Source: Nitrospira sp. (GTDB lineage Bacteria > Nitrospirota > Nitrospiria > Nitrospirales > Nitrospiraceae). From it: 64,000 nt of DNA. The translations under genes were made by a program, and so were the position numbers. Shown piece by piece: positions 1 through 17,499 of the stretch. The notes beneath the pieces are model-generated. The model was not told the DNA's origin, ran no database searches, and worked only from the letters and a program-made list of their open reading frames with translations. Location of the stretch: positions 47,367 to 111,366 of the forward strand of contig JAHBWT010000004.1 in assembly GCA_019636815.1 (NCBI GenBank), read 5' to 3'. Position 1 is the stretch's first letter; each line of letters opens with the position of its first letter.

Positions 1-296
1 ATAACGGCGGCACGGAAAATAGGAGCGATCCGCACGCGGCGATCGTCCGCGCGAAGACATCCTAGGAGCGAAACAAGGGAGGTGCAATTATGGCTCCGCT
101 CAATGATGACGATGTTCCTCCCATTCATCATGTCATTTTCCCAATGACACATGCCCTTCGCGCGTCGCGTCGCTCGCCGAGCTGGAAGCTGTTTCAAGGC
201 TGGCGATCGCAGAACAAAAACCGACAGGCAGGATTGCTGGGCAATGGTACAAGGAAGGCACAAGCATTGTGGCGCTGTTCGAGGACAGGTGGATAG
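1..296. other. 5' flank of mgtC with a weak small ORF
   Basis: No recognisable gene. A 68-codon ORF (90-296, +) has a good ribosome binding site (AGGGAGGTG, about 79-87) and ends in TAG at 294-296, directly before the TTG start of mgtC and in the same frame. Its predicted sequence is basic and matches no family I know. It could be a leader ORF coupled to mgtC or chance; I do not call it a gene. Confidence 0.4.
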
Positions 297-992
297 TTGA
301 ACGTGACCGCGGACGACGTGGAAATGGTGTTACGTTTGGTCACGGGGGTAATTGCAGGGGCCCTGATCGGATACGAGCGGTCGTATCACGGGAGGCCGGC
401 AGGCTTCCGTACACATGCACTGGTTTGTACCGCATCCAGTTTGCTGATGCTGGTTACCGTCTATGAGGCCCATTGGGTTCGTGTGACCGCAGAGCTCGTC
501 AGACTGGATCCGACTAGAATGGCTCAAGGAATAATGACTGGAATAGGCTTCTTGGGCGCGGGCGTCATCATGAAGGATGGGCCCTCGGTCCGGGGACTCA
601 CGACGGCTGCGTCAATCTGGATAACGGCCGCCATAGGCATTCTGGCCGGAATCGGATTCTACTTTCCGCTCGTCGTATCGGTCTTGCTCACGATCGGCAT
701 ACTCTCGATGCTTCGCTGGATTGAGGCACGCATGCCCACTCAGACCTATTACCACTTCGAAGTTCGGTTCGCGCGAGCTTCCAACATGACCGAAAGCACA
801 CTGCGCACATTGATAGAAAGCCATAGGTTCACCATCGCGAACTTCAGCTATCATCTCGACTCGGAAGGGCGCATGCGTCGTCACAGCATGGTCTTGCGCA
901 CCATTGACCGCTCGAGCGCATCGCGGCTGTCAGAAAAACTCGAGGCAACTGAATCCGTGCATGAGTTTCGCATTGCTCCGACAGGAGATTGA
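297..992 (+). CDS. MgtC/SapB family membrane protein
   Basis: A 231-residue inner-membrane protein of the MgtC/SapB family. The N-terminal half has hydrophobic helices and the family hallmark around residues 83-95 (GIGFLGAGVIMKDG, then GLTTAASIW). The C-terminal ~85 residues form a soluble ACT-like domain, as in long MgtC proteins. Family members are linked to magnesium limitation or acid adaptation, and MgtC is known to modulate the F-type ATPase; the role here is not shown. The start is a TTG preceded by GAGGACAGG; a GTG two codons later or an ATG at 324 is possible. No magnesium transporter gene is adjacent. Confidence 0.88.
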   Translation: MNVTADDVEMVLRLVTGVIAGALIGYERSYHGRPAGFRTHALVCTASSLLMLVTVYEAHWVRVTAELVRLDPTRMAQGIMTGIGFLGAGVIMKDGPSVRGLTTAASIWITAAIGILAGIGFYFPLVVSVLLTIGILSMLRWIEARMPTQTYYHFEVRFARASNMTESTLRTLIESHRFTIANFSYHLDSEGRMRRHSMVLRTIDRSSASRLSEKLEATESVHEFRIAPTGD

Positions 993-1319
993 TGAATGTA
1001 GGTCATTTTATCTATCGTTATCGCACACTAAAAGCACGCCCTGCTGATCAGTCAACAGCATCCACGCATCTTCTGCTGGCCGATCAACAGCAAATCGACT
1101 AAACGGTAAGAAACAAACCGGATACGCCAGGCATAACTTCTGCACTGCTCGTGTCATGGCGCTTTCTCATTTGAGTGCACGCCCTATTGCGTAAATATGA
1201 GTGGAAACTATCCTGTTGCTGATTTTATAACTCTATTCTCATTCTCGCTGTATACGTCTATGCCCATGAGGCACATCGGAACCTGTATCGCTTCCGATCA
1301 CATCGCGTACTGAACCCTT
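993..1319. other. Intergenic region, no gene recognised
   Basis: 327 bases between two + strand genes. I see no coding ORF, RNA gene or clear terminator. The antisense ORF that enters it from 1757 is a shadow of the next gene. Confidence 0.5.
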
Positions 1320-2336
1320 ATGATGAATGCTTATGATCGGAACAAATGGCCGGTGTTGGCTCTGCGCCATTTCAAGAAAGAATGGATGAGCGAAGAAGTG
1401 GAAAGAGAATCCTTCAGGGCCATGGCATTTGCGCGAATACAAACTCTTGTGAACGGCTTCGCTCAAATCGGATATCACCTCGCGGTGCTGTTCCTGAGTG
1501 CCGCCATCGCTCTCTCCCTGCCGGCGATAGCAGACAGATTTCTCGTGTACTGGGCGAGGATCGACGATGACAGGACATCTCTGTTGATGTTGGAAGCGAT
1601 CGTGGCAAGCCTCTTGATCCTCTTCGCGAACGTGATCCGCCTCAGCGTTCGTGACAAAGCACTGGCCAAAATGGCGATCGGCGCCGGCCTGGTGTCGTAT
1701 TATCCGAGTCATGAGCCCAGTGCGCGGAGACGGATCAAGCAACTCAAAGAGAAGCAAGGGACGGGGCGGACCGTCATGGCGATCGGATCGAGCGGGTATG
1801 GAACGTTGACCGATCAGGTCGGAGATTTGGCTTCCGTCCTGGAGCGGTGCACGGGAGCCAAGATCTTACTGGTCAATCCATACAGCCCGGAAGCGCGGGC
1901 CCGAATTTGCGCGATCGCCGATCCGGACTACTCTGTGGAGTTATTTCAAGAGGAGGTTCGGCGCAGCATCGAACTACTCAAACGGCTGCGCGCGATGGGA
2001 AAATCTGTCAGGCTCAAATTTTACTCCGAACCCCCGCTCGTCAAACTGGTCATCCTGGGAGACTATCTTTGGTTACAACATTACCATCCGGACTTGAATG
2101 TCCGCACGATGCCTGAATATGTGTTCAGGCACAACCCAAAGGATCACGGCTTGTACACGTTCTATTATCACTACTTCGTCCAACGCTGGAGCAGTTGCGA
2201 CGTAGGAGATTATGATTTCGACAGAGAGGAGTTGGTCTATCGAGATCCCCACGACAGGTCAGACCGGAGAGTTCCATTCGGCCAGGAGTCAGAAGCATAC
2301 CCTGGCACGATATCCGGATCCCTGCCTGCACGCTGA
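1320..2336 (+). CDS. Two-TM protein with a PLD-like/DUF5919-like C-terminal domain
   Basis: A 338-residue protein of unknown function. Two hydrophobic helices lie near residues 45-68 and 88-105. After a basic linker (ARRRIKQLKEKQ) comes a soluble domain with a Rossmann-like opening (RTVMAIGSSGYGTL) and a C-terminal stretch (VRLKFYSEPPLVKLVILGDYLWLQHYHP) that resembles the DUF5919/phospholipase-D-like domains found in some regulators. No complete HKD motif is visible, so catalysis is doubtful. The start is uncertain: ATG at 1320 has no obvious ribosome binding site, while ATG at 1386 follows an AAGAAAG stretch. It converges with the - strand sulfur array. Confidence 0.7.
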   Translation: MMNAYDRNKWPVLALRHFKKEWMSEEVERESFRAMAFARIQTLVNGFAQIGYHLAVLFLSAAIALSLPAIADRFLVYWARIDDDRTSLLMLEAIVASLLILFANVIRLSVRDKALAKMAIGAGLVSYYPSHEPSARRRIKQLKEKQGTGRTVMAIGSSGYGTLTDQVGDLASVLERCTGAKILLVNPYSPEARARICAIADPDYSVELFQEEVRRSIELLKRLRAMGKSVRLKFYSEPPLVKLVILGDYLWLQHYHPDLNVRTMPEYVFRHNPKDHGLYTFYYHYFVQRWSSCDVGDYDFDREELVYRDPHDRSDRRVPFGQESEAYPGTISGSLPAR

Positions 2337-2461
2337 TCGGTTCAGCACGGATCTCAGTCTTCTCTTCGGACAACCGGTATCACTCGAGCCGTTCTCATCT
2401 CCTCCACCGTCTCCTGATCTCACGTTCGTATGCTGTCAGGAAAGCGGCATCACCGCGATCG

Positions 2462-3544
2462 TTATTTCGTTCCTTGAGAACCGAGCATCCCGTACCGAAT
2501 CAAGCGATCGCGAACCACATTTCGACTGATGCCTAGAAGCCGAGCGGTGCGAAGCTGATTCTGCTCGCAATAGACGTACGCCATACGAATGACTGTCTCA
2601 TCAATCAGTCGATACAGATCCGGTGTCGTTGTCCTGTTCGCAAAAAGATGAGTCAGCGCCGTTTCGAGCGGCGGAAGCAGCGTCGCCGACGCCACTCTCG
2701 GTTCCTGTGGAGAAGACACGGGCAGGCGCAGGTCGTCAGGGCGTATGCTCGTTCCCGAGCAGACGAGGAGTGCATGGTGGATGGAATTTTCAAGCTCACG
2801 AATGTTGCCCGGCCATGGATACGAGAGAAGAGCCTGGACTGTTTCAGGAACAAGCTCGACTCGTTCGTAGCCGAGCCGCGCCCCGTAGAGATTCAAAAAA
2901 TGCCGAACCAGCGGCATGATATCCCCTGGACGTTCCCGCAACGGAGGAAGGTCAACGGATACCACCTTCAGCCGGTAATAGAGGTCTCCTCGAAACCGGC
3001 CGGCTGTGACGGCCTCATCAAGCTTCACATTTGTCGCGGCGATCAATCGCGCATCAATCGGAATAGGGCGGCGCGAACCGACCCGTACGACTTCCCGCTC
3101 CTGGATCACCCGAAGCAATTTCGCCTGCAAGAGAAGGGGAAGATCCCCGATCTCATCCAAAAATAACGATCCTCCCCGGGCGGTCTCAAACCATCCTGCT
3201 TTATCGCTGACGGCCCCCGTGAACGAACCACGCTCATGGCCGAATAATTCGCTTTCCATGAGTGATTCGTTTATGGCGGCGCAATTGAACGCCACGAACG
3301 GACCCGATCGACGATCGCTCAATTCATGAATATGGCGGGCGATCAACTCCTTGCCGGTACCGGTCTCACCGATGATGAGTACCGTCGCGTCGCTGGGCGC
3401 AATATGTCGGACTTCACCCAGAAGAGACCTGGAAGCCTGGTCCTCGAATACCAAACAAGTGGCACGAGCGGAAAGGTCCAGCGCATGCGAGTTGGGAGCC
3501 ATGCCGATCTGAATCGAAGAATCATATGTGATGGAGCTGCGCAT
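2462..3544 (-). CDS. Sigma-54-dependent activator, SfnR-like, without receiver domain
   Basis: A 360-residue bacterial enhancer-binding protein that drives sigma-54 promoters by ATP hydrolysis. The AAA+ core carries Walker A (GETGTGKE, residues 59-66), the sigma-54 contact loop as GSFTGA (106-111, a conservative variant of GAFTGA), Walker B (GGSLFLDEIGDL) and the PWPGNIRELEN helix. A Fis-type HTH ends the protein (RTARLLGISRNVVRDRL). Only ~30 residues precede the core, so there is no receiver, PAS or GAF domain. This layout and the sequence resemble SfnR, the sulfur-starvation activator of Pseudomonas. It is the last gene of the sulfur array, so it may control this array or a distant sulfur regulon. 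Confidence 0.88.
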   Translation of the reverse strand: MRSSITYDSSIQIGMAPNSHALDLSARATCLVFEDQASRSLLGEVRHIAPSDATVLIIGETGTGKELIARHIHELSDRRSGPFVAFNCAAINESLMESELFGHERGSFTGAVSDKAGWFETARGGSLFLDEIGDLPLLLQAKLLRVIQEREVVRVGSRRPIPIDARLIAATNVKLDEAVTAGRFRGDLYYRLKVVSVDLPPLRERPGDIMPLVRHFLNLYGARLGYERVELVPETVQALLSYPWPGNIRELENSIHHALLVCSGTSIRPDDLRLPVSSPQEPRVASATLLPPLETALTHLFANRTTTPDLYRLIDETVIRMAYVYCEQNQLRTARLLGISRNVVRDRLIRYGMLGSQGTK

Positions 3545-3562
3545 ACTACACTCAGGGAACGG

Positions 3563-4540
3563 CTAAATGGTCCATTGCCCGATTCGTTGCTCGAGCGCCT
3601 TTGGCTGGATGGTGGCCGACGTGCGCATTTGCGCCTGGACGACATCGCTGCCGGCCGGCACGCTCTGCGTCAGCCACACGTTGCCGCCGATGATCGACCC
3701 TCGGCCGATCGTGATGCGCCCCAAGATCGTGGCTCCGGCATAGACGACGACATCGTCCTCCACGATCGGATGGCGGGGTTCTCCTTTGACGAGCACGCCG
3801 TGCTCGCCTTCCGTGAAGCGCTTGGCGCCGAGAGTGACGGCCTGATAGAGACGGACGCGCCGGCCGATGACGGTCGTTTCACCGATGACGACGCCGGTCC
3901 CATGATCGATGAAAAAATGGCTGCCGATCTCGGCGGCCGGATGAATATCAATGCCGGTCGACGAATGAGCGATGTCCGAGATCAAGCGAGCGACCAACAG
4001 CGCGCCCAGGCCATACAAGGCGTGGGCGATGCGATAATAGATGACGGCGGTCATGCCGGGATAACAGAGCAGAATCTCCGACGCGCTGGTGGCCGCCGGA
4101 TCGCCTTGGTAGGCGGCCTGTAAGTCGGTGAAGAGCAGCGCCCGTATGGCCGGGAGCTGGCTGGCGAAGGCGCCGGTGATTTCCCCGGCCTTGCGGTCGA
4201 GGGTCGGCTGCCCCGGTTGGTCATCGGGCTGGGAGGCGAACAGCAATCCCCTGCGAACTTGATCCTGCAAGAGAGGCAACGTTTGGTTCAAGGTATGGCC
4301 GACGAAATAGTCGATGTTCGTCTCATTCAAATCAGCCCGGCCATAGTGCGTCGGAAACAAGGCGGCGCACAGGCCCTCCACGATGCCGAGCAATCTGTTC
4401 CGAGAGGGCAACTCGTGAATCCGTCCGTGATGTCTGATGTTGTGGGTCAGCTCGCGCGAGGCACGCAGCTCCGTCACAATCTGATCGAGACTCCAGGTGG
4501 ACGCCGCGGTTTCCTGCTGCCGCATCGTGTCGTCTTCCAT
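3563..4540 (-). CDS. epsC: Serine O-acetyltransferase, EpsC type
   Basis: A 325-residue enzyme that acetylates L-serine with acetyl-CoA to give O-acetylserine, the carbon acceptor for cysteine synthase. The N-terminal half is helical. The C-terminal half is a left-handed beta-helix with the canonical GIDIHPAAEIG, HGTGVVIGETTVIG and LYQAVTLGA segments, then further hexapeptide turns. It lies 5 bases after the desulfurase stop and 18 bases before the activator, so it is co-transcribed. Serine acetyltransferases are frequent partners of family 2A encapsulins, which supports the encapsulin assignment. An internal ATG at 4525 is an alternative start. Confidence 0.93.
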   Translation of the reverse strand: MEDDTMRQQETAASTWSLDQIVTELRASRELTHNIRHHGRIHELPSRNRLLGIVEGLCAALFPTHYGRADLNETNIDYFVGHTLNQTLPLLQDQVRRGLLFASQPDDQPGQPTLDRKAGEITGAFASQLPAIRALLFTDLQAAYQGDPAATSASEILLCYPGMTAVIYYRIAHALYGLGALLVARLISDIAHSSTGIDIHPAAEIGSHFFIDHGTGVVIGETTVIGRRVRLYQAVTLGAKRFTEGEHGVLVKGEPRHPIVEDDVVVYAGATILGRITIGRGSIIGGNVWLTQSVPAGSDVVQAQMRTSATIQPKALEQRIGQWTI

Positions 4541-4545
4541 GGCGG

Positions 4546-6312
4546 TCAGCGGCGCCGGAGGTCGTGCAGTGCCTGCACGAGAATATCGATTTCGTCGCGC
4601 GTGTTGTAGAACGCCAGCGACGGGCGGACGGTCCCTTCCAGCCCGAATCGACGCACAGTGGGCTGAGCGCAGTGGTGCCCGGCCCGCACCGCGATGCCGT
4701 GCCGATCCAAATGCCTGGCGATCTGCTCGTTCGGCATGCCGTCCATGACGAACGACAGCACACTGGCCTTGACGGCGGCCGTCCCGATGGGACGGAGCCC
4801 GCGAACGGATGAGAGCGCCTGTGTCGCGTACTCCAACAACTCGTGTTCATACGCGGCGATGACGGGCATGCCTATCCGGGTGAGATAGTCGATCGCTGCG
4901 CCGAGGCCCACCACTCCGGCGATATCCGGAGTGCCCGCCTCGAATTTTTGCGGAGCTCCCTGGTACGTCGTCTTCTCGAACGTCACGTCTTTGATCATGT
5001 TGCCGCCCCCTTGATAGGGCGGCATCTCTTCCAGCAAGGCGGCTTTGCCGTACAACACGCCGATGCCGGTCGGTCCGAATATTTTGTGTCCTGAAAACAC
5101 GAAGAAGTCGCAGCCCATGGCCTGCACGTTGATCGGGAGATGCGGCGCGGACTGTGCGCCGTCCACCAGGACCGGTATCCCTTGCGCATGGGCCATCCCA
5201 ATGATCGCTTCGACCGGATTGATCGTCCCCAAGGCGTTCGAGACCTGCGTCACCGCCACCAGCTTGGTGCGAGGGCCGAGCAGCGGAGCAAACTGTTCGA
5301 GGATCAATTCGCCGGCGTCGTTGATCGGCGCGACCCGCAGCAAGGCCCCGGTCTGCTCGGCCAGGATCTGCCAGGGCACGATGTTGGCATGATGTTCCAT
5401 CACGGTCAGGAGGATTTCGTCGCCTCGGCCGATATGGGCACGCCCATAAGTCTGGGCCACCAGATTGACGGCCTCCGTGGTGCCGCGGACAAAGACGATT
5501 TCCTTGGTGTCGGCCGCGCCGATGAACTGCCGCACTTTTTCACGCCCGCCCTCGTAGAGATCCGTTGCGCGGGCCGCCAAGGCGTGAGCAGCGCGGTGGA
5601 TGTTGGAATTATCGCGGCCGTAGAAACGAGACGTGGCGTCGATGACGCCCCGCGGCTTCTGCGTGGTGGCGGCGTTGTCGAACCAGATGAGCGGGCGACC
5701 GTGGACTCGTTGGTGAAGCACGGGAAAGTCCCGCCGGATCGCGTCCACCTCGACTATCGACAATGTGGGACCGGCAGCGGGCTCTCGTGCTGCCGAGCCG
5801 GCGCGTGACCCGGCTTCACGTAGAAAGTAGAACGCCGGAGCGGCGTCGACCGTATCGGCATACACCTCCCGCGCGCTGAAGCTGCCGTTGCAACGAGGTT
5901 CCCCGAATGGGTACACCTCGTCGGAGTCGGTCCTGTGCTCGCCGGAGCCAAGCTCTTTTCGTGCCGGTGACAGATCAGGAGGTTCTGTTTGCCCGGCATG
6001 GACCGGCGGATGAGTCGTTGTGGTCGCCAAGGGATAGCCGCCCGCTAGGCCCGGATTGTCCGGCCTGTCTATCGTCGGGACAGTGACGAATGAAGCCGGG
6101 AATGTCGAGGGCGTTCCGGCAATGCCCGGCACGCCTCCCGGTATTCCACCGAGGGCAGTCGGCGTAACCGGCAACACAGACGACGCTGCGGAAATCAGTG
6201 ATGATGATTGGGCAGTGATGGCGGAATCCCTGTACAACTCATTCGCTAATTGCGTGATCAACACCGTGTCGAACGAATCGGTGTCATGGTTGATCGGGTT
6301 GTGTGTGGTCAT
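4546..6312 (-). CDS. Encapsulin cargo cysteine desulfurase (SufS-like) with disordered N-terminal targeting domain
   Basis: 588 residues. Residues ~186-588 are a SufS-type class V aminotransferase fold that removes sulfur from cysteine to give alanine and an enzyme persulfide. The PLP lysine is Lys410 (FVFSGHK) and the persulfide cysteine is Cys548 (RAGHHCAQP). Residues 1-185 are low complexity, rich in Pro, Gly, Ser and Thr, and absent from ordinary SufS. Such extensions are known to direct family 2A desulfurases into their shell. I chose ATG 6312, 4 bases after the shell stop, with an AAAGG ribosome binding site inside the shell gene; the longer ORF to 6387 would overlap the shell. No SufE or SufU acceptor gene is in the window. 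Confidence 0.95.
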   Translation of the reverse strand: MTTHNPINHDTDSFDTVLITQLANELYRDSAITAQSSSLISAASSVLPVTPTALGGIPGGVPGIAGTPSTFPASFVTVPTIDRPDNPGLAGGYPLATTTTHPPVHAGQTEPPDLSPARKELGSGEHRTDSDEVYPFGEPRCNGSFSAREVYADTVDAAPAFYFLREAGSRAGSAAREPAAGPTLSIVEVDAIRRDFPVLHQRVHGRPLIWFDNAATTQKPRGVIDATSRFYGRDNSNIHRAAHALAARATDLYEGGREKVRQFIGAADTKEIVFVRGTTEAVNLVAQTYGRAHIGRGDEILLTVMEHHANIVPWQILAEQTGALLRVAPINDAGELILEQFAPLLGPRTKLVAVTQVSNALGTINPVEAIIGMAHAQGIPVLVDGAQSAPHLPINVQAMGCDFFVFSGHKIFGPTGIGVLYGKAALLEEMPPYQGGGNMIKDVTFEKTTYQGAPQKFEAGTPDIAGVVGLGAAIDYLTRIGMPVIAAYEHELLEYATQALSSVRGLRPIGTAAVKASVLSFVMDGMPNEQIARHLDRHGIAVRAGHHCAQPTVRRFGLEGTVRPSLAFYNTRDEIDILVQALHDLRRR

Positions 6313-6316
6313 CGTG

Positions 6317-7279
6317 TCAGCCTTTCGGATAGACATATTCGTGATAGAACTTGGTCGAGACATTATCGAGACGGGCGATCGCATCATCCGTCAGCACCGC
6401 CGTGGAGAAATAGCGTGTGATGAGATGCGAGGCGATCCCGTGATCGTTGGTGCCCATGTAGCGGACGGAGAGGCCGGGCTCAAGCTCGCCGGCGACCCCG
6501 GCCTTCTGCAGACCGACGACGCCTTGCTGCGATTCACCCACGCGCAGAAGTAGGAGACTCGTCTTGCCCTCCTTGTCGATCGCCAATTTATTGGTTGGAA
6601 CCAATGGAATGCCTCGCCAGGTAAGGAACGGCGAGCCGAAGAGGCTCACGGTGGGAGGCGGCACCCCTCTCCTGGTCGCTTCACGCCCGAATGCCGCGAT
6701 CGCTTTGGGATGACCGAGAAAGAAAGCCGGCTTCTTCCAGACCAGCGTCAACAGCTCGTCCAGATCATCCGGCGTGGGAGTCCCCTTGCGGGTCTCGATA
6801 CGCTGCTGAGCAACCACCTCTTTCAAGAGTCCGAATTCCGGGTGGTTCAGCAGTTCCCACTCCTCGCGCTCCTTCACCGCTTCAACCGTCAGACGCACCT
6901 GTTCGCGCAGCTGGTCGATACGATTACTGTACAGGTCGGTCACCCGCGTGTGCGTATGAATGACTGTTTGGATGGTACTCAGATGGTATTCACGCGGATG
7001 CAATTCATAATCGACGAACGTAGCCGGCAGTTGCGGCTCACCGGTATCGACCGTCAACAGTTCCACCTTCACGTCGCCGAATTCGTTGGCCGGTTTGCCT
7101 TTCGCGGCTTTGGCGACCCGATTGAGGCGGTACACGCCGCCATCGACGTCGACCCACGGCAACAACTTGTGGAGCCACCGCGGAGTGATTTCAGTCATCT
7201 GCACCGCGGTGACGGTGGCGGTGGCGAGGTTGCGCGCCGCTTGGGCGCTCAGGCTGGTTCTCGTGTCGTTCTGACTCAT
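6317..7279 (-). CDS. Family 2A encapsulin nanocompartment shell protein (SrpI-like)
   Basis: 320 residues, close to the ~310 of cyanobacterial SrpI. The HK97-type shell subunit is recognisable from its N-terminal arm (SLSAQAARNLATAT...ITPRWLHKLLPWVDVDGGVYRLNR), the family 2A YELHPREYHLSTIQTVIHTHTRV segment, the E-loop region, and the C-terminal SVRYMGTNDHGIASHLITRYFSTAVL stretch. Family 2A shells assemble into closed particles around a cysteine desulfurase; an Acinetobacter example stores elemental sulfur. I chose ATG 7279, where homologous sequence begins, with the ribosome binding site AGAAAGGA; the ORF extends upstream to 7390 without similarity. There is a 4-base gap to the cargo gene. 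Confidence 0.95.
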   Translation of the reverse strand: MSQNDTRTSLSAQAARNLATATVTAVQMTEITPRWLHKLLPWVDVDGGVYRLNRVAKAAKGKPANEFGDVKVELLTVDTGEPQLPATFVDYELHPREYHLSTIQTVIHTHTRVTDLYSNRIDQLREQVRLTVEAVKEREEWELLNHPEFGLLKEVVAQQRIETRKGTPTPDDLDELLTLVWKKPAFFLGHPKAIAAFGREATRRGVPPPTVSLFGSPFLTWRGIPLVPTNKLAIDKEGKTSLLLLRVGESQQGVVGLQKAGVAGELEPGLSVRYMGTNDHGIASHLITRYFSTAVLTDDAIARLDNVSTKFYHEYVYPKG

Positions 7280-7301
7280 TGCGTTGTCCTTTCTGCTGTG
7301 A

Positions 7302-7318
7302 GCGGGCATGATGCCCGC
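7302..7318 (-). promoter_or_regulatory. Hairpin in the leader of the encapsulin shell gene
   Basis: A perfect inverted repeat, GCGGGCA-TGA-TGCCCGC on the + strand, 23 bases upstream of the shell ATG inside a 91-base gap. There is no following T-run on the - strand, so it is not a typical terminator. It may stabilise or process the downstream shell-cargo mRNA. Confidence 0.45.
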
Positions 7319-7370
7319 AGGTGTAATGGATCTGTTACCTGTCGTCTCAAAGGCTCGTGGATATGCGGTC

Positions 7371-8204
7371 TCATCTTCTTCCTGAATCACCGGCAGGGGG
7401 AGTCCGTACTTGGCAGACCTCCTGTTCGTGGTCCGTGAGTTCGGTGATGGTCGGGTGCTCGCCGCAAAGCGGGCACCTGGGATTGCGCTTCACTCTGATC
7501 TCGCGGAACACGGTATGTCGAACGTCAAAATCAAGCAGCCGATCGGTCAAAGGCCGACCGATACCGAGAATTAATTTGAGCGCTTCGCTCGCCTGAATGG
7601 TTCCGATCACGCCCGCCAGTACTCCCAATACACCGGCTTCCTGGCAACTTGCCACTAAACCGGGCGGCGGCGGTTGCCCGAAGACGCACCGGTAGCAGGC
7701 CGATTGCCGCGGCACGATGGTGGTGACGCGCCCCTCGAACCTGAGAATGCCTCCATGCACGAGCGGCCTTCCTTCAAAGTGGCAGGCGTCATTGATGAGA
7801 AACTTGGCCGGGAAATTATCCACTCCGTCGAGGACGACATCATAGCCGCGGATCAATTCGAGCGCGTTTGCAGCCATCAGCCTCGTTTCATGCATGGCCA
7901 CCGCAACATCGGGGTTGAGAGCCTGTATTTTGTCTTTCGCCGAGAGCACCTTGAGGCGTCCGACGTCGGGAGTACGGTGAATCACTTGCCGCTGGAGATT
8001 GGACAAGTCCACGACATCGTCATCGATCAGGCCGATGGTGCCGACACCGGCTGCAGCCAGATATAACGCCGCCGGAGATCCCAGACCGCCCGCCCCTACG
8101 ATCAAGACGCGCGACCGGGCAATTTTCTTCTGGCCTTTCCCGCCGACCTCCGGCAGGAGAATATGGCGGCTGTATCGCGTGATCTGATCTTCCGTGAATC
8201 CCAT
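7371..8204 (-). CDS. HesA/MoeB/ThiF-family sulfur-carrier adenylyltransferase
   Basis: A 277-residue E1-like enzyme that activates the C-terminal glycine of a ubiquitin-like sulfur carrier as an acyl-adenylate, so that it can receive sulfur. Visible features are the nucleotide loop (VGAGGLGSP, ~36-44), the conserved D-DVVDLSNLQRQVIH segment, and two zinc-binding CxxC pairs (CYRC and CPLC). There is no C-terminal rhodanese domain as in MoeZ-type enzymes, so sulfur must come from another protein, for example a desulfurase. It lies 13 bases after the cysteine synthase gene, and its substrate is probably the ThiS-like protein at 9147-9347. Confidence 0.92.
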   Translation of the reverse strand: MGFTEDQITRYSRHILLPEVGGKGQKKIARSRVLIVGAGGLGSPAALYLAAAGVGTIGLIDDDVVDLSNLQRQVIHRTPDVGRLKVLSAKDKIQALNPDVAVAMHETRLMAANALELIRGYDVVLDGVDNFPAKFLINDACHFEGRPLVHGGILRFEGRVTTIVPRQSACYRCVFGQPPPPGLVASCQEAGVLGVLAGVIGTIQASEALKLILGIGRPLTDRLLDFDVRHTVFREIRVKRNPRCPLCGEHPTITELTDHEQEVCQVRTPPAGDSGRR

Positions 8205-8217
8205 GTGGTTACCACTA

Positions 8218-9150
8218 TCAGTTCGTAGAGAAATACTTTTCCATGCTGAGGTATCGCTCGCCGGTATCGCAGAGCACGGTGACTACCGTCTTGCCCGGAC
8301 CGAGCTCCACAGCCACCTGTTGAGCCGCCGCCACGTTCGCTCCTGAAGAAATTCCTCCGAGCAAACCCTCCCAGCTGGCCAGGCGCTTGGAGATGCGATA
8401 GGCCTCGTCGTCCGTGATCGTTATCACTCCATCCATGATTTTCCGATTCAAGATGACCGGCACAAACCCGGCTCCGATCCCCTGGATCTTGTGAGGGCCG
8501 GGAGGGCCTCCGGAAAGAACCGGAGATGCCGCCGGTTCTACGGCGATGACGCGAACCGCCGGGTTCCGTTCCTTGAACACTTCGCCGCAACCCGTGATCG
8601 TCCCGCCGGTGCCGACGCCGGCGACGAACGCGTCGATCCGGCCGTCCAGCGCGTTCCAAATTTCCACGGCCGTCGTGCTTCGATGCATCGCCGGGTTCGC
8701 GGGATTCGAGAATTGATCCGGCTTGAAGTATGACGGGTCCCGGCTCACGATACAGTCGGCTTCCCTGATCGAACCCAGCATCCCCTCCCAGCCGGGAGTG
8801 CGCACCAGTTCCGCTCCATACGAAGACAAGAGACTGACCCGTTCCAGACTCATGGTTTCCGGCATGACAAGGATCAATTTGTACCCGCGCACGGCCGCGA
8901 TGAGCGCCAGACCGATGCCGGTGTTTCCACTGGTCGGCTCGACGATCGTGGCGCCGGGCTTCAGTCTTCCGCTCCGCTCAGCCTCATTGATCATATTGAG
9001 ACAAATTCGGTCCTTCACGCTGCCGCCTGGGTTTGTGCTTTCCACCTTGGCATAGATGGTCGCACCACCCTCCGGCGAGAGCCGGTTCAGCCGAACCAGC
9101 GGAGTATTACCGATCAGTTCCGTAACATCGCGATGTCCGTGAACAGTCAC
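8218..9150 (-). CDS. Cysteine synthase, PLP-dependent (CysK/CysM family)
   Basis: A 310-residue fold-type II PLP enzyme that makes cysteine from O-acetylserine (or O-phosphoserine) and a sulfur donor. The PLP lysine is Lys46 in NPGGSVKDR; TSGNTGIGLA binds the substrate carboxylate, and GVGTGGTITG binds the PLP phosphate. The gene overlaps the sulfur-carrier gene by 4 bases (ATGA). That coupling recalls the CysO-CysM pairing in Mycobacterium, where a protein thiocarboxylate is the sulfur donor. Sequence alone does not tell whether free sulfide or a carrier is used here. EpsC in the same array would supply O-acetylserine. Confidence 0.94.
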   Translation of the reverse strand: MTVHGHRDVTELIGNTPLVRLNRLSPEGGATIYAKVESTNPGGSVKDRICLNMINEAERSGRLKPGATIVEPTSGNTGIGLALIAAVRGYKLILVMPETMSLERVSLLSSYGAELVRTPGWEGMLGSIREADCIVSRDPSYFKPDQFSNPANPAMHRSTTAVEIWNALDGRIDAFVAGVGTGGTITGCGEVFKERNPAVRVIAVEPAASPVLSGGPPGPHKIQGIGAGFVPVILNRKIMDGVITITDDEAYRISKRLASWEGLLGGISSGANVAAAQQVAVELGPGKTVVTVLCDTGERYLSMEKYFSTN

Positions 9151-9347
9151 CTGCCGCCTCCCATATAAAACAAGAACTCGACACGATCTCCCTCCTTCAG
9201 CGGCGTGCTGTCCAACCGATCCCGTTCGATCATGACGTCGTTCAGCTCCACGGCAACCATCTGTGGTTCAATCTGCTTGGCACGCAGAAGATCCAAGAGA
9301 ACCGACGCCTGAATGTCTTCGGGTTTTCCATTGACCGTGATAACCAT
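9147..9347 (-). CDS. ThiS/MoaD/CysO-like sulfur carrier with an extra C-terminal arginine
   Basis: A 66-residue beta-grasp protein with the ThiS-like pattern VNGKPEDI...LLRAKQIEPQMVAVELN...L.EGDRVEFLFYMGGG. Sulfur carriers need a free C-terminal Gly-Gly for adenylation and thiocarboxylation; here the reading frame ends GGGR. The last arginine would have to be trimmed, as in the QbsE/QbsD precedent with a JAMM peptidase, or the chain would be inactive. No peptidase of that type is in the window. Overlap with the cysteine synthase gene and the nearby adenylyltransferase argue for a role in cysteine synthesis rather than thiamine. Confidence 0.85.
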   Translation of the reverse strand: MVITVNGKPEDIQASVLLDLLRAKQIEPQMVAVELNDVMIERDRLDSTPLKEGDRVEFLFYMGGGR

Positions 9348-9374
9348 TGCCGGTGTTCTCTCCCGTTCCGGACG

Positions 9375-9794
9375 CTAGATAAACAATGTGGTTTCTGCGC
9401 CGGCGGTCAACGTCAGAATGGTCGGCAGCCCCATGACCGCATCCACCCGCGCCGTGACCGCTTGTTCTTCCACGCCCATGTACTCCAGTCCTGCGCTGCA
9501 GGCGATCAACTGGAATGTACCCACGAGTCTGGCGTCTTCGAACATCTCTGAAATCTTGGGAACCTTTTTCTCCTTTAACAGACGCGCGACCTCGTCGACC
9601 GAAGAAGCATATTCCGGCGGGAAATCCACTTCATCAATCCTCCCTTCCGCCAGTTTCTTGATCGTCCAGAAGAGCAGCACGACGATCACGTCTTTCCCCA
9701 TTGCAGCAGCCGTCATGCCGAGTGTCGCCACCTGGTGGAGCTTGTCATAGGTCGCATTGTGGGCAAACAGCACGAAACGAGGCTTCTGTGTCAT
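9375..9794 (-). CDS. DsrE/DsrF-like family protein
   Basis: 139 residues with the DsrE fold: KPRFVLFAHNATYDKLHQVATLGMTAAAMGKDVIVVLLFWTI opens the domain, and a conserved cysteine is at Cys99 (LIACSAGLEYMG). DsrE-family proteins bind or relay sulfane sulfur. Its place between the sulfate ABC genes and the sulfur carrier suggests a persulfide relay or sensor, but this is inference. The start at 9794 follows GAGGGAAC; an upstream in-frame ATG at 9815 lacks that support. Confidence 0.85.
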   Translation of the reverse strand: MTQKPRFVLFAHNATYDKLHQVATLGMTAAAMGKDVIVVLLFWTIKKLAEGRIDEVDFPPEYASSVDEVARLLKEKKVPKISEMFEDARLVGTFQLIACSAGLEYMGVEEQAVTARVDAVMGLPTILTLTAGAETTLFI

Positions 9795-9866
9795 GGATGT
9801 TCCCTCATGTATCAAGCATCTCTACCGGAAAGGCCGCCGCGTGCACGTCACGTCGTTACCAGAACG

Positions 9867-10934
9867 TTAGGAACTGGGCACCCTGAACACTTGCAGCTGC
9901 CTCGGGTGCACAAAGACCACGTCACCTTGCCGTAACTCCAACTCACGATAGCGCTCTTTGGTCAATTCGACCTCGATCGTTTGGGACGAGTGCACGGCGA
10001 GCAATTCGACCCGGACGCGCGACCCGGCGGTGAGCACATAACGCACGGACGCTTCGAGCTGCGAAGTGTTGGTGCGGTGCCGACTCAGTTCCAGGTCGTG
10101 GGGACGGACGAACGTGACTTCATGCTCGTCCTCCAAGTCCTCGGGGAGGGCGAATTCTCCGTTCGGATGCTCCTGAGCGGATCGGTCATGGGGAATCCGT
10201 CCATGGAACACGTTGACGTCTCCGAGAAAGTGGTATACGAACGGGGTGGCCGGTTGTTCATAGACTTCGTCCGGCGTGCCGATCTGCTCGATCTGCCCTT
10301 GATGCATGACGACGACTCGGTCGGACGCTTCCAGCGCCTCCTCTTGATCGTGAGTCACGAGAATGCTCGTAATGTGCAATTCGTCATGGAGCCGTCGAAG
10401 CCAGCGGCGCAGTTCTTTACGGACTTTGGCATCCAAGGCGCCGAAGGGCTCGTCGAGCAGCAGCAGTTTCGGTTCCACGGCCAACGCTCGGGCCAACGCG
10501 ACTCGTTGCCGCTGGCCTCCTGAAAGCTGGGTTGGATATCGATTCGCCATCGCTTGCAACTGCACCAGCGCGAGCAATTCGTGAACCTTTTTGTGGATGC
10601 GCTCGGCCGAGGGGCGTTGCGCGCGGGGCAGCACTTTCAAACCGAATGCGACGTTGTCCGCCACGGTCATGTGCCGGAACAGAGCGTAATGCTGGAACAC
10701 GAATCCCACGTGGCGCTCGGAGATGTGTCGATCCGTCACTTCGACGTCGTTGAGGACGATCCGCCCTTGGTCCGGCTGTTCCAGTCCGGCGAGGATTCTC
10801 AGCAGCGTGGTTTTGCCGCAGCCGGAAGGGCCGAGGAGCGCGATCAGCTCACCGGACGGAACGTCGAGGCTGACGTCGTTCAACACGGTGAAGGTGCCGA
10901 ATCGCTTGGTGATATGGTCGACCCGAATGCTCAT
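9867..10934 (-). CDS. cysA: Sulfate/thiosulfate ABC transporter ATP-binding protein
   Basis: 355 residues. The ATPase domain has Walker A (GPSGCGKTT, from residue 35), Q-loop ([11 protein letters not shown]), signature ([15 protein letters not shown]), Walker B ([12 protein letters not shown]) and H-loop ([10 protein letters not shown]). A C-terminal TOBE-like beta domain (~240-350) completes the CysA architecture. It powers sulfate import through CysU and CysW, whose genes lie directly upstream with 15- and 10-base gaps. Confidence 0.95.
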
Positions 10935-10949: not shown

Positions 10950-11840
10950 TCAGTGCGTCTTGAGCGGCTCTTCGGCCGCCTCGACCGAGACATATTTGTG
11001 CTCGACGATGCTCTTGGCCGCCAGCGTCACGATGGCCAACAGCGTCAGGAGCGATGCCACCGCGAAGGCCGCCACGGCGTTGTACTCGTTATAGAGAATT
11101 TCGACGTGCAGCGGCATCGTATTGGTCAGCCCGCGGATATGACCGGAGACCACCGATACCGCACCGAACTCACCCATCGCCCGCGCATTGCACAAGATCA
11201 CCCCGTAGAGGAGACTCCATTTGATGTTGGGAAGCGTGACGCGGATGAACGTTTGCCATCCTGACGCGCCCAGCGTGATGGCGGCTTCCTCCTCCTCCCT
11301 TCCCTGAGACTGCATGAAGGGGATGAGCTCGCGAGCAACGAACGGAACGGTGACGAAGAGAGTGGCGAGCACGATGCCCGGCAAGGCGAAGATGATTTTG
11401 ATATCGTGCTCGGAGAGCCACGGTCCCAGCCACCCTTGCAAGCCGAAGAGAAGCACGTAGATCAACCCGGCAATGACGGGAGAGACGGCCAGCGGAATAT
11501 CGATGATCGTGATCAAGACCTGTTTGCCGACGAACTCGAACTTGGAAACGGCCCAGGCGATGGCGATGCCGAACGCGGTATTCAGGGGAACCGCCAAGGA
11601 CGCCGCCAACAGCGTCAGGCGGATGGCGGCCAGCGCATCCTCGTCCATGAACGACACCACATAGCCGGAAAGTCCGTTTTTCAAGGCCTCCGCAAAGACC
11701 GCGACGAGTGGGATGAACAGAAACAGGGTGAGATATCCCAGCGCCAGGGCGATGAATCCCCAGCGGACCAGCGGATGTTCCGTCGTCAACGAAACTTTCC
11801 AGGTCGTACCTTTGGCTCTTAGAGCGATATCCGCAGGCAT
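10950..11840 (-). CDS. cysW: Sulfate ABC transporter permease CysW
   Basis: 296 residues with six predicted membrane helices and the EAA loop ([23 protein letters not shown]) that docks on the ATPase. It pairs with CysU to form the sulfate channel. The start at 11840 is supported by a GAGGAAA ribosome binding site and by homology beginning there; the 42 upstream in-frame codons overlap the cysU gene and look like noise. Confidence 0.94.
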
Positions 11841-11850
11841 AGGCGTTTCC

Positions 11851-12687
11851 TCAGTGCGTCTCCCGCCGGTCGCTGCTCCACCATTGGAGCAAGTTGATGA
11901 GCAGCGACAACACGAACGATACGACGAGCATGACGACCCCCAGCGCAGTCGCTCCCGCATAATCATACTGCTCCAACTTGGTCATGATCAGCAACGGAGT
12001 GATCTCCGACTTGAGCGGCATGTTGCCGGCGATGAAGATGACCGACCCGTATTCTCCGACGGCGCGCGCGAACGCCATGGCCATGCCTGTGAAAATGGCG
12101 GGCCACAGCTCCGGAAGAATCACGGCGCGAACGGTTTGCCAGCGGTTGGCGCCCAGGGTGATGGCGGCTTCTTCGGCTTCCTTGTCCAGCGCCTGGAGAA
12201 CGGGTTGCACGGTGCGGACGACGAAGGGCAATCCGATGAAGGTCAGGGCCACCAAGACACCAAGCGGCGTAAAGGCCACCTTGATACCCAGCGGCTCCAG
12301 ATGACGGCCCAGCCAGCCGTTCGACGAATAGATGGCGGTCAGCGCGATGCCGGCGACGGCCGTCGGAAGCGCAAAGGGAAGGTCTACAAGGGCATCCACG
12401 AACGAGCGGCCGGGAAAACGGTACCGCACCAGGACCCAGGCCACGAGCGATCCGAACAAACCGTTGATCAGAGCGCCGATCAGCGAGGCGCCAAACGTCA
12501 ACTGGTAGGAGGCGATCGCGCGGGGCTGCGTGACGGTCTCCCAGAACTGCGCCCACGTCAGGGTGCTGGTCTTAATGAACATCCCGCTGAGAGGAATCAA
12601 CACGATGAGGCTGAGATAGAACAACGAGAACCCCAGCGTCAGGCCGAATCCCGGAAGAACGCTCGGTTGTTTCAACGCGAAAGACAT
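11851..12687 (-). CDS. cysU: Sulfate ABC transporter permease CysU/CysT
   Basis: 278 residues with six predicted membrane helices. The opening [28 protein letters not shown] is typical of CysT/CysU, and the EAA loop reads [24 protein letters not shown]. The start at 12687 has an AAAGGA site; an ATG at 12720, overlapping the preceding stop as ATGA, is the alternative and would add 11 residues. Confidence 0.93.
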
Positions 12688-12716
12688 ACGATTCCTTTGC
12701 GGTCGTTCGACGGCAT

Positions 12717-13781
12717 TCATTTCCGCTGCCGTGCGATCTCGTCATAGACTTGATCGAACGTTCCGCCGTCGGCAAAGTGCGTGTTGATCGCCTGTTTCCA
12801 TCCACCCAAGAGGTCGTCGACCGACCACAACGTGCTCGCAGGGAATCGCGCGGCGTACTTGTCCGCGATGCGGGCGAGGCTGGGGCGGTAATGATGTTTC
12901 GCAGCAAGCTCCTGCCCCTCGTCCGAATACAAATATTCGAGGTACGCTTCGGCGATCGTTCGCGTGCCGCGCTTGTCGACCACGGCATCCACGACGGCGA
13001 CGGGCGTTTCTGTGAGGACGCTGACGCTCGGGTAGACCACGTCGAACCGATCCGCGCCCAATTCTTTTTGGATCAGGGAGACTTCATTTTCGAACGTAAG
13101 CAGGGCGTCGCCGATCTCGCGCTGGGCGAACGTCGTCGTGGCCCCGCGTCCGCCTGTGTCGAAAACCGGGACGTTTTGCACGAACCGGCGGATGAAATCC
13201 CTGGCTTCCCTGTCGGTGCCACCCCGCTTCAGGACCTGGCCCCAGGCGGCCAGGAAGCTGTATCGACCGTTTCCGGAGGTTTTGGGGTTCGGCATGACGA
13301 TGGCGATACCCGGCTTGGCGAGGTCGTCCCAGTCGCGAATGTGCTTTGGATTTCCCTTGCGGACGAGAAACACGATGGTCGACGTGGAGGGGACGCTGCG
13401 ATGGGGAAACCGAAGCCGCCAGTCTTCCCGGACGAGCTTACCCTTCTCGGAAAGGACGGCGATGTCGCTTTCCTGGTTCATGGTGACGACGTCGGCCTCA
13501 AGCCCGCCGAGGACGGCCCGCGCCTGCGCCGACGAGCCGCCGTGGGATTGCTTGACGACCACTCGCTGACCGGTTTTCTCCCGCCAGTACTTGACGAAGG
13601 CGGCGTTGTAGTCCTTGTAAAACTCCCGCGACACGTCGTACGAGACGTTCAGGATCTCCTTGTCCTCGGTTTCAGCGAGGCCGAAGGCCGGCAACAGCAG
13701 GCCGATCCCCATCGTGGTTGCGAAGAAAACCACGTTGGTTCGCCACATACGTGACAGGCGTCGTCTTTTGAGGCTGTTCAT
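12717..13781 (-). CDS. Periplasmic sulfate-binding protein, copy 2
   Basis: 354 residues with a signal peptide (hydrophobic to [12 protein letters not shown]) and the Sbp/CysP fold. Recognisable blocks are [71 protein letters not shown] and the C-terminal [22 protein letters not shown]. It captures sulfate or thiosulfate for CysUWA. It overlaps the upstream paralogue by 4 bases (ATGA) and shares most blocks with it, so the pair is a tandem duplication. Confidence 0.94.
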
Positions 13782-14797
13782 CGACCGGCCTTTTCGCCTT
13801 GGAGGTAGATTTGATCGAAAGTCCCGCCATCGGCGAAGTGCGTCTTATTGGCGTTCTTCCAGTTCCCGAAAAACTCTTCCAGCGTGAACAGCTCGATTTT
13901 TGGGAATTTGGTCTGTTTGGCGGCGACGGACTGGAGGCTGGGACGATAGTAATGCTTGGCGGCGATGGTCTGCCCTTCCTCCGAATAGAGGTATTCGAGA
14001 TAGGCCTGTGCGACTTCTCGAGTACCCCGTTTGTCCACGATTTTGTCCACCAGACTGACCGTAGGCTCCGCCAGAATGCTGATCGGCGGCACGACGATGT
14101 CGAATTTGTCTTTTCCCAGACTTTCGCCGCTCAGGAGGATTTCGTTTTCCCAGTTGATCAGGACGTCGCCGATCCCGCGCTCCACGAACGTCGTCGTCGC
14201 ACCACGCGCGCCGGAGTCGAGCACCGGCACGTTCTTGAACAAACGGGCGATGAAGTCCTTGGCTTTGGCTTCGTCTCCACCGGATTGTTTCAGCGCATAG
14301 CCCCAGGCGGCCAAGTAGTTCCATCGGGCGACTCCGGAGGTTTTGGGGTTCGGTGTAATGACGGAGACGCCGGGTTTGACCAGATCGTCCCAATTCTTGA
14401 TGCCCTTGGGGTTGCCTTTGCGGACCAGAAAGGCGATCGTCGAAGAATACGGAGCGCTGTTATGCGGCAGTCGAGTCTGCCATTCGGCGGGAAGCAGAGA
14501 AGCTCTCTCCGCAATGGCGTCGATATCATAGGCCAGTGCCAAGGTGACGACGTCGGCTTCAAGGCCGTCGATGACGGCGCGCGCCTGCTTGCTGGAACCG
14601 CCGTGGGATTGCTTGATCGCGACGGACCGGCCGGTCTTGGCCAACCAATGTTTGGTGAAGGCCGCGTTGAATTCCTGGTAGAGCTCGCGCGTCGGGTCGT
14701 ACGAGACGTTGAGCAGGGTTATGTCGCCCGCGGCGAGCGCACGGCTTGCAAAGAAGAGTGAGAAGGCCACAAGAATGAATCCGGCGTATTGCTTCAT
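13778..14797 (-). CDS. Periplasmic sulfate-binding protein, copy 1
   Basis: 339 residues with a signal peptide ending near SRALAAGD. It has the same Sbp signature blocks as the next gene ([83 protein letters not shown]). The two paralogues differ in many surface positions. They could split sulfate and thiosulfate between them, as Sbp and CysP do in enterobacteria, but sequence alone does not assign which is which. Confidence 0.94.
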
Positions 14798-17464: not shown

Positions 17465-17499
17465 GGGAATCTCCTTGTGCCTATGCCGTTCCATGTGCG

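What the first reader, a model, noticed from the sequence alone, without database searches (positions are those of the whole stretch)
4546..7279. Family 2A encapsulin nanocompartment with cysteine desulfurase cargo inside a full sulfate-to-cysteine array
The sequence shows an SrpI-like shell (320 aa) and, 4 bases later, a SufS-like desulfurase with a 185-residue Pro/Gly/Ser-rich extension and intact Lys410 and Cys548. Family knowledge: such desulfurases are packaged in the shell, and one Acinetobacter particle stores elemental sulfur. What is unusual is the setting: sulfate ABC transport, EpsC, cysteine synthase, a sulfur carrier and its adenylyltransferase in the same run. Inference: cells may bank sulfane sulfur when sulfate is plentiful and re-mobilise it through the carrier.
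Basis: partly seen in the sequence, partly recalled or inferred. Interest (0 to 1): 0.95.

Follow-up and report, generated by a model that had tools for sequence, protein, structure and literature searches.

The report
Sulfur-storing nanocompartment wired to carrier relay
A few Nitrospira bacteria carry, directly behind their sulfate-uptake genes, one gene block encoding the protein of a virus-like shell, a sulfur-extracting enzyme predicted to be packed inside it, and a duplicated small sulfur-carrier system that would likely turn the shell's sulfur back into cysteine, giving a testable answer to how such compartments might return what they store.

Summary
Window 6317-7279 encodes a Family 2 encapsulin shell; 4 bases on, 4546-6312 encodes its SufS-type desulfurase cargo with a 190-residue extension, both published cargo motifs, Lys410 and Cys548. 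Shell, desulfurase and EpsC beside cysteine genes are already in print, so that core is ordinary. "Full" is wrong: sulfate-reduction genes lie on another contig. "Banking when sulfate is plentiful" is untested; the published relative is induced by sulfate starvation. Three things look new. (1) The shell is 2A by architecture but branches inside 2B: monophyly of all cNMP-bearing shells is rejected (AU p 0.0005), and it keeps a linker remnant where 2B has its cNMP domain. (2) ThiS-CysK-ThiF, with a DsrE gene in front, is a second copy of a carrier-cysteine module that 75 of 79 genus genomes hold at least in part; a second CysK occurs in exactly the 5 genomes with this shell. Aliarcobacter shows a similar pairing. 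(3) In 16 of 16 genus genomes with the same sulfate transporter but not this shell, the block was not found beside it. No ThiG was found, against a thiamin role. Return of stored sulfur through DsrE and the carrier is inferred, not shown.

The parts
6317..7279 (-). Family 2 encapsulin shell (SrpI-like, 320 aa), no cNMP domain
   Evidence: tree
7073..7117 (-). shell residues 55-69 (VAKAAKGKPANEFGD): linker remnant at the place where Family 2B shells carry the cNMP domain
4546..6312 (-). SufS-type cysteine desulfurase cargo (588 aa)
6232..6249 (-). cargo motif 1, LANELY (published motif LARLANEFFS)
5821..5832 (-). cargo motif 2, FYFL (published motif AASPYYFLDG)
5083..5085 (-). Lys410 codon (PLP lysine by family knowledge)
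4669..4671 (-). Cys548 codon (persulfide cysteine by family knowledge)
3563..4540 (-). serine O-acetyltransferase EpsC (325 aa)
   Evidence: NF041874 160.8 bits, cut-off 150
2462..3544 (-). sigma-54 activator (AAA+, no receiver domain found), last gene of the run; in L008, L010 and L012 its homologue lies between cysA and dsrE
7371..8204 (-). ThiF/MoeB-type E1 adenylyltransferase (277 aa, no rhodanese domain), 81% identical to core copy on contig C56
8218..9150 (-). cysteine synthase CysK, 79% identical to core copy
   Evidence: TIGR01139 438 bits, cut-off 351
9147..9347 (-). ThiS-like ubiquitin-fold sulfur carrier (66 aa), ends GGG plus one residue; 4-base overlap with cysK; 67% identical to core copy
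9375..9815 (-). DsrE/F-like sulfurtransferase-fold protein; Cys106 invariant in the 23 sequences aligned; true start probably the internal ATG at residue 8
9867..10934 (-). CysA-type sulfate ABC ATPase
   Evidence: TIGR00968 392.2 bits, cut-off 342.75
10950..11966 (-). CysW sulfate permease (start as listed overlaps cysT by 116 bases; true start probably internal)
11851..12720 (-). CysT-type permease (named by Pfam permease match and position)
12717..13781 (-). sulfate-binding protein 1
13778..14797 (-). sulfate-binding protein 2

Best explanation
This is a Family 2 encapsulin gene run whose shell is predicted to enclose a cysteine desulfurase and likely hold the sulfur it frees, joined in one block to a duplicated ubiquitin-like sulfur-carrier module that would pass that sulfur back into cysteine. 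Shown by sequence and comparison: shell and cargo belong to the families of solved or tested relatives; the shell branches inside cNMP-bearing Family 2B shells; the block DsrE-ThiS-CysK-ThiF-shell-desulfurase-EpsC(-sigma-54 activator) follows cysA of a sulfate-transport run that also exists without it; its ThiS-CysK-ThiF part repeats a module found in most Nitrospira genomes searched, whose other copy lies near a JAMM peptidase gene. Inferred: (1) cargo is loaded by its N-terminal motifs; (2) it converts cysteine to alanine and sulfane sulfur that stays in the shell; (3) DsrE, in the role that a rhodanese may have in other such operons, takes the sulfur as a persulfide; (4) ThiF adenylates the carrier and sulfur makes it a thiocarboxylate; (5) CysK joins it to O-acetylserine from EpsC; (6) the JAMM peptidase encoded on contig C56 trims the carrier tail and releases cysteine. 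Expression is expected under sulfur limitation, not excess.
For: Shell and cargo; cargo loading by the N-terminal domain was shown experimentally for S. elongatus (PMC8049743, passages). Carrier part: the 5 of 79 genus genomes with this shell are exactly the genomes with a second CysK match over 500 bits; 75 of 79 have a core copy, whole or partial, over 200 bits (counted from its listing); two ThiS matches over 75 bits occur in 4 of 59 genomes, the 4 of those 59 with this shell. Core locus ThiS-CysK-ThiF-PALP-ThiS2-NIL-ThiF2-JAMM in 5 of 5 core regions read; JAMM motif HxHx7SxxD seen by eye in the own copy (sequence; motif recalled). No ThiG match in the genome while 14 of 14 controls ring, 13 over the cut-off. 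Transporter without block: 16 of 16 genus genomes that have the transporter but not this shell. Aliarcobacter cibarius plasmid: cysteine synthase, JAMM, carrier, E1, rhodanese, shell, cargo, cysE and cysK in order, with two IS elements in between. Rhodanese matches (E 1e-4 or better, anywhere in the DNA held, some weak) in 24 of 29 loci with cNMP-less verrucomicrobial shells (L013-L041), in Nitrospira arrays 0 of 7. IscS, IscU and HscA over their cut-offs elsewhere in the genome can serve Fe-S assembly.
Against: No assembly, loading, sulfur content or thiocarboxylate was tested. The five genomes may descend from one acquisition, so the pattern is not five independent events. Two genomes (G057 in L142; G076, the same stretch as L009 and L165) lack thiF in the array, so it is dispensable there, perhaps covered by the core copy. 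No JAMM in the array. The synthase is CysK-type, and in three genomes without this shell (G042, G021, G046) the core CysK lies beside a carrier all the same, so the module's function does not depend on the shell. DsrE has no match in the 5 core regions, so it is not part of the core module there and may serve another step; it has many relatives in Nitrospira. In 74 of 74 non-Nitrospira loci no carrier, E1, JAMM or DsrE match was found in the DNA held (many loci are cut by contig ends), so the carrier is not a general part of such operons. The cargo scores just under its NCBIfam cut-off (792.4 of 800). Of the 7 Nitrospira-array cargos, 5 (L007, L008, L010, L011, L012) fail even the loose motif-1 pattern. 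Desulfurase and cysteine synthesis in one run would be a futile cycle if both ran at once.
Confidence: 0.45

Rival explanations
1. Supply only: the carrier module makes cysteine from newly reduced sulfide when sulfate is scarce, and the shell is a one-way sink or detoxifier of excess cysteine; the two parts are merely co-expressed as a sulfur-limitation operon with the importer.
For: The core CysK is held without this shell by 70 of the 75 genomes that have it (counted from listings); sulfate importer in the same run; SrpI is induced by sulfate starvation.
Against: A second copy of the module is kept only with the shell; Aliarcobacter pairs carrier, E1, JAMM and shell in another clade.
Confidence: 0.35
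2. The carrier is an ordinary ThiS for thiamin (or a MoaD for molybdopterin) and the desulfurase feeds cofactor synthesis.
For: The carrier passes the TIGR01683 ThiS cut-off (63.5 against 37.45 bits).
Against: No ThiG match in the genome, controls 14 of 14 (genome 95% complete); a carrier fused to what reads by eye like MoaE is on C51; thiS overlaps cysK by 4 bases; both copies sit beside CysK.
Confidence: 0.06
3. The cNMP-less shell state is ancestral and the cNMP domain entered shells twice, or was moved by recombination, so nothing was lost in the Nitrospira/Verrucomicrobia shells.
For: The tree needs two changes and cannot tell gain from loss; two cNMP-less Verrucomicrobia rows (L039, L040) branch first with weak support (82/65); 14 of 35 cNMP-less shells lack the linker motif.
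Against: Inserts of both 2B groups are homologous (28-38% in the 30 best pairs printed, best E 6.6e-21) and at the same site; the post-insert linker motif is kept in 21 of 35 cNMP-less shells and 10 of 10 Methylobacterium/Verrucomicrobia 2B shells, 3 of 7 other 2B shells, 0 of 7 classic 2A (pattern written).
Confidence: 0.25
4. Fe-S cluster assembly: the enclosed desulfurase is the cell's SufS.
For: SufS family by NCBIfam.
Against: The genome has IscS, IscU, HscA and an HscB-like gene together on C66; no Suf scaffold gene is in the run (SufBCD not searched genome-wide).
Confidence: 0.04

Closest known systems
SrpI-CyD encapsulin of Synechococcus elongatus PCC 7942 (pANL)
   Same: Shell, desulfurase with disordered N-terminal domain and two motifs, EpsC and CysK next door; window shell 55.5% identical.
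   Different: pANL has a rhodanese and, in the 17 kb read, no carrier, E1 or DsrE match and no annotated sulfate transporter; SrpI is in the classic 2A clade, the window shell is not.
Acinetobacter Family 2A sulfur-storing encapsulin (Benisch et al. 2024, Sci Adv; only its title was seen, in the reference list of PMC10960027; content and organism recalled)
   Same: Same shell-cargo pair; a fetched A. baumannii shell is 58% identical.
   Different: Rhodanese and EpsC matches nearby, no carrier module found in the 11 kb read.
Family 2B encapsulins of Methylobacterium and Verrucomicrobia
   Same: Nearest cNMP-bearing relatives, 73-76% identical in the shell core, also with desulfurase genes nearby.
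   Different: They carry a 144-158 residue insert (cNMP_binding in L048) that the window shell lacks.
CysO-CysM-Mec+ cysteine pathway of Mycobacterium (PMC3227635, passages)
   Same: Ubiquitin-like carrier, E1, PLP cysteine synthase; a JAMM peptidase elsewhere in the genome.
   Different: CysK-type synthase rather than CysM; E1 lacks the rhodanese domain; carrier ends GGG plus one residue; paired with an encapsulin. That 2011 paper called the sulfur source unknown.
Aliarcobacter cibarius pACIB sulfur locus
   Same: Carrier, E1, JAMM, cysteine synthase, 2A shell, cargo, cysE and cysK within about 11 kb.
   Different: Shell is in the classic 2A clade, 50% identical; rhodanese instead of DsrE; two IS elements inside the run.

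Membership tests
Family 2A encapsulin (definition by architecture, PMC8346489) | SrpI-like HK97 shell sequence | tested here: met
   Pfam PF19307 356 bits; solved homologues
Family 2A encapsulin (definition by architecture, PMC8346489) | no internal cNMP-binding domain | tested here: met
   alignment
Family 2A encapsulin (definition by phylogenetic clustering, PMC8049743) | shell groups with SrpI-type 2A shells | tested here: not met
   Groups with 2B shells 100/99; 7 classic 2A shells form one side of a branch 100/99
Family 2B encapsulin | cNMP-binding domain inserted in the E-loop | tested here: not met
   absent; linker remnant only
Family 2 cysteine desulfurase cargo | SufS-type domain with Lys and Cys plus N-terminal extension with the two published motifs | tested here: met
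   family-model score 792.4 lies just under its 800 cut-off; disorder itself not predicted here
Encapsulin (any) | self-assembly into an icosahedral shell and cargo loading | not testable with these tools
   AlphaFold monomer model was poor (mean pLDDT 48.3) and was not used
CysO-type carrier cysteine pathway | ubiquitin-fold carrier with C-terminal GG and cognate E1 | tested here: inconclusive
   PF02597 and PF00899 met; GG is not terminal: GGG is followed by one residue
CysO-type carrier cysteine pathway | CysM (O-phosphoserine) synthase | tested here: not met
   CysK model 438 bits over its cut-off, CysM model 292 bits under 394.2
CysO-type carrier cysteine pathway | Mec+-like JAMM peptidase | tested here: met
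   In the genome, on C56 near the core copy, not in the array
CysO-type carrier cysteine pathway | thiocarboxylate on the carrier used for cysteine | not testable with these tools
   none

The most novel reading that the evidence does not exclude
A Family 2B encapsulin lineage shed its cNMP domain and was rewired to a ubiquitin-like protein relay: sulfur banked in the shell leaves as a DsrE persulfide, becomes a carrier thiocarboxylate, and is built straight into cysteine, so the nanocompartment and an E1/ubiquitin-like system form one reversible cysteine bank, reached independently in Nitrospira and Aliarcobacter.
Probability: 0.28. Interest if true: 0.85.

Novelty: new variant of a known kind. 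Interest (0 to 1): 0.6.

Why it matters
In the passages I read, how sulfur leaves a desulfurase encapsulin is only proposed (a rhodanese acceptor, PMC8346489), and a 2011 paper called the sulfur source of the CysO carrier unknown (PMC3227635). This block would answer both with one testable relay. It also suggests that the 2A/2B split by domain content does not follow descent, so cNMP-less shells may include both original and stripped forms. And the array marks a minority of a genus known for nitrification (recalled) as possible sulfur bankers.

Tried and rejected
Thiamin role of the carrier: set aside because no ThiG match was found. Sigma-54 promoter: my own strict scan (9 of 11 consensus letters with GG and GC fixed; consensus recalled) found none in the window's first 20 kb or in L007-L010 and L012; sigma-70-like and terminator-like sites are not clearly above shuffles (3 against mean 6.0; 19 against 16.0, sd 3.5). 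Shell structure prediction failed (mean pLDDT 48.3) and no fold search was run on it. First motif count (49 and 37 of 87) used a faulty domain boundary; (52 and 74 of 87; shuffles 3.4% and 0.09%) used looser patterns written. By these, 5 of 7 Nitrospira cargos miss motif 1 (L007, L008, L010, L011, L012); by eye they show LANESY, LANEAY or LTQEFF/LTQEFL at that place. The extra residue at the carrier tail may be forced by the GTGA overlap with cysK, so it is weak evidence for a cleaved cap. The AU test group was named after a first tree had been seen. That first tree (LG+I+G4) gave the node joining cNMP-less and Methylobacterium/Verrucomicrobia shells only 15.3/75; with L039 and L040 apart, the second tree counts the cNMP-less group as two changes. 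The linker pattern was written. Rows: of the 80 loci, 51 gave shells for the trees; L041 (partial) and six Methylobacterium shells were dropped before the first tree (59 rows of 66) and 14 more before the second (45 rows). The ThiF tree has no starred set that holds the window copy, so array ThiFs are unresolved there. HMMs were seeded with window, own-genome, L147, L150 and L151 proteins, so hits there are partly self-matches. The tblastn part printed nothing because its file was not yet laid; one search replaced it.
Full report
What is there. On the minus strand the window encodes, in order of transcription from 14797 to 2462 with gaps of at most 91 bases: two sulfate-binding proteins, CysT- and CysW-type permeases, a CysA-type ATPase, a DsrE-like protein, a ThiS-like carrier, CysK, a ThiF/MoeB-type E1, a Family 2 encapsulin shell, a SufS-type desulfurase, EpsC and a sigma-54 activator. 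Shell and cargo have strong matches to named families and solved structures. The cargo keeps Lys410 and Cys548. Its 190-residue N-terminal extension contains LANELY and FYFL, matching the two published motifs LARLANEFFS and AASPYYFLDG (PMC8049743, passages). Over 87 cargo proteins, extracted from 94 loci, such motifs occur in 52 and 74, against 3.4% and 0.09% of 8700 shuffled extensions (patterns loosened after a first count).

What is known about that core. Family 2A shells with desulfurase cargo, serine acetyltransferase and rhodaneses are published (PMC8346489, passages), and pANL carries cysK-epsC-srpI-cyd-rhodanese. Sulfate-transport genes also lie within 10 kb of several verrucomicrobial shells (for example L029, L036, L038, L040). 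The unusual part is therefore the carrier, its E1 and DsrE. A full-text search for 'encapsulin' with 'sulfur carrier protein' found 0 papers, and 'encapsulin' with 'Nitrospira' listed 4, seen as a listing only. That library holds only open-licence papers, and supplementary tables were not read, so this does not prove absence from print.

The shell's descent. The shell passes both the 2A and the 2B NCBIfam cut-offs (468 over 380; 462.5 over 400). It is 73-76% identical in its core to cNMP-bearing shells of Methylobacterium and Verrucomicrobia, but only 50-58% to seven classic 2A shells. In a tree of 45 shells with the insert region left out, the window shell sits with 2B shells (100/99), away from the classic 2A group (100/99), and holding all 2B shells together is rejected (AU p 0.00054; group named after the first tree). 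The inserts of the two 2B groups are homologous and at the same place. Where 2B shells carry the cNMP domain, the window shell keeps VAKAAKGKPANEFGD, matching the linker that follows the domain (for example AAAAAQANEFGE in L048). A linker motif of this kind is found in 21 of 35 cNMP-less shells, 10 of 10 Methylobacterium/Verrucomicrobia 2B shells, 3 of 7 other 2B shells and 0 of 7 classic 2A shells (pattern written). Loss of the domain is the simplest reading. Two gains or recombination are not excluded; the count of changes alone cannot tell, and the first tree supported the key node weakly (15.3/75). Nichols et al. already wrote that the domain is 'predominantly' in 2b, so exceptions were hinted at. 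A search for 'encapsulin', 'family 2B' and 'Verrucomicrob' found 0 papers.

The carrier module is a duplicate. The own genome has on contig C56 a core locus ThiS-CysK-ThiF-PALP-ThiS2-NIL-ThiF2-JAMM. The same order was found in 5 of 5 core regions read (L139, L140, L141, L143, L146). DsrE has no match in those regions, so it is an addition to the module, though it has many relatives in Nitrospira (1408 matches, 120 best listed). Array copies are 67% (ThiS), 79% (CysK) and 81% (ThiF) identical to the core copies. The array CysKs form their own group inside the Nitrospira CysKs (90/84 within 97/96), while the ThiF tree does not resolve the array copies. In 79 genus genomes the shell search rang in 6: 5 with this cNMP-less shell and G001 with an insert-bearing one. 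A core CysK, whole or partial, over 200 bits is in 75 of 79; a second copy over 500 bits is in exactly the 5 (counted from its listing). Two ThiS matches over 75 bits occur in 4 of 59 genomes, the 4 of those with this shell. If genomes were independent the CysK pattern would have a chance of 4e-8, but they may share one acquisition. In the 36 rows printed (some loci twice) the carriers end in GGG plus one residue (R, L, Q or C); because thiS overlaps cysK at GTGA, that last codon may be forced.

Where the block sits. CysT over 500 bits is found in 21 of 79 genus genomes: the 5 with this shell and 16 without (counted from its listing; one of the 16, G001, has its insert-bearing shell on another contig). 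I read the transporter region in all 16: no DsrE, ThiS, CysK, ThiF, shell, cargo, EpsC or sigma-54 match in the stretch. About 5 kb or more after cysA was read in 14 of them; in L195 and L197 the contig ends about 2 and 0.7 kb after it. So the block was added behind cysA in one or more steps, or lost elsewhere.

Wider occurrence. Of 80 loci fetched from named genomes, 6 are Nitrospira; 5 of these 6 have the carrier (the sixth contig begins inside cysK). By their contig places three of the six (L007, L008, L009) are the stretches of G005, G006 and G076. Of the other 74, none has a carrier, E1, JAMM or DsrE match at E 1e-4 or better in the DNA held. Of 13 plasmid loci read (of 32 records), one does: Aliarcobacter cibarius pACIB with cysteine synthase, JAMM, carrier ending AGGI, E1, rhodanese, 2A shell, cargo, cysE and cysK, with two IS elements between. 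Its shell is in the other clade, so the pairing looks independent (inference). Rhodanese matches occur in 24 of 29 loci with cNMP-less verrucomicrobial shells (L013-L041; anywhere in the DNA held, some weak) and in 0 of 7 Nitrospira arrays. I read DsrE as the stand-in (inference): its model is confident (mean pLDDT 91.2), its nearest solved fold is a DsrE/F-like protein (2qs7), and Cys106 is invariant in the 23 sequences I aligned.

Mechanism. I commit to storage with return: cargo makes sulfane sulfur inside the shell; DsrE carries it out; ThiF and the carrier make a thiocarboxylate; CysK with O-acetylserine from EpsC makes carrier-bound cysteine; the C56 JAMM peptidase frees it. Only the gene content, the descent and the co-occurrence are shown. 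Loading rests on the S. elongatus experiments, storage on the title of Benisch et al. (content recalled), carrier chemistry on the mycobacterial pathway (PMC3227635, passages). The main rival is that the carrier module is only the supply line and the shell a sink. The genome has sulfate-reduction genes on C35 and Isc assembly genes on C66, so neither a missing reduction route nor Fe-S assembly explains the block. S. elongatus SrpI is induced on sulfate starvation, so I expect this array to be made under limitation.

Verdict. Observation confirmed with corrections; interpretation partly supported. New variant of a known kind; interest 0.6.

Noticed in passing
L151 (Aliarcobacter cibarius pACIB) 25-10539: Family 2A encapsulin in one run with carrier, E1, JAMM peptidase and two cysteine synthases; two IS elements inside the run.
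   Followed up: partly
L005 (G001:C87): One genus genome carries a shell with a cNMP-sized insert (466 aa), 50% identical, and only one strong CysK copy.
   Followed up: no
L009 (= L165, G076) between cysK and shell; L142 (G057): thiF is missing between cysK and the shell in these two array copies; the core copy may serve.
   Followed up: partly
window 15948-19137: Genes upstream of the sulfate transporter that recur with and without the shell: a 545-aa protein without Pfam match, a ModA-like binding protein and a 232-aa protein; other genomes show an HTH/alginate-export set in the stretch instead.
   Followed up: partly
L010-L012 cargo N-terminal extension: A stretch like EAYPFGEPRCNG, seen in the Nitrospira cargos printed, appears a second time as EAYAFGGPHYQGNG or similar in L010-L012: a possible extra shell-binding repeat.
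   Followed up: no
L163 10610-13093 (G000:C35): 827-aa sulfite/nitrite-reductase-like protein beside CysH, TrpD-like, CysD and CysN/C genes; no NCBIfam model over its cut-off.
   Followed up: no
window 297-992 and L147 1248-1796: An MgtC/SapB family gene lies near the encapsulin block in both the window and pANL; may be coincidence.
   Followed up: no
window 2462-3544; L008, L010, L012 near 6.2-6.4 kb: The sigma-54 activator changes place (end of run, or between cysA and dsrE) yet stays with the array, suggesting a dedicated regulator; no consensus sigma-54 promoter was found by a strict scan.
   Followed up: partly
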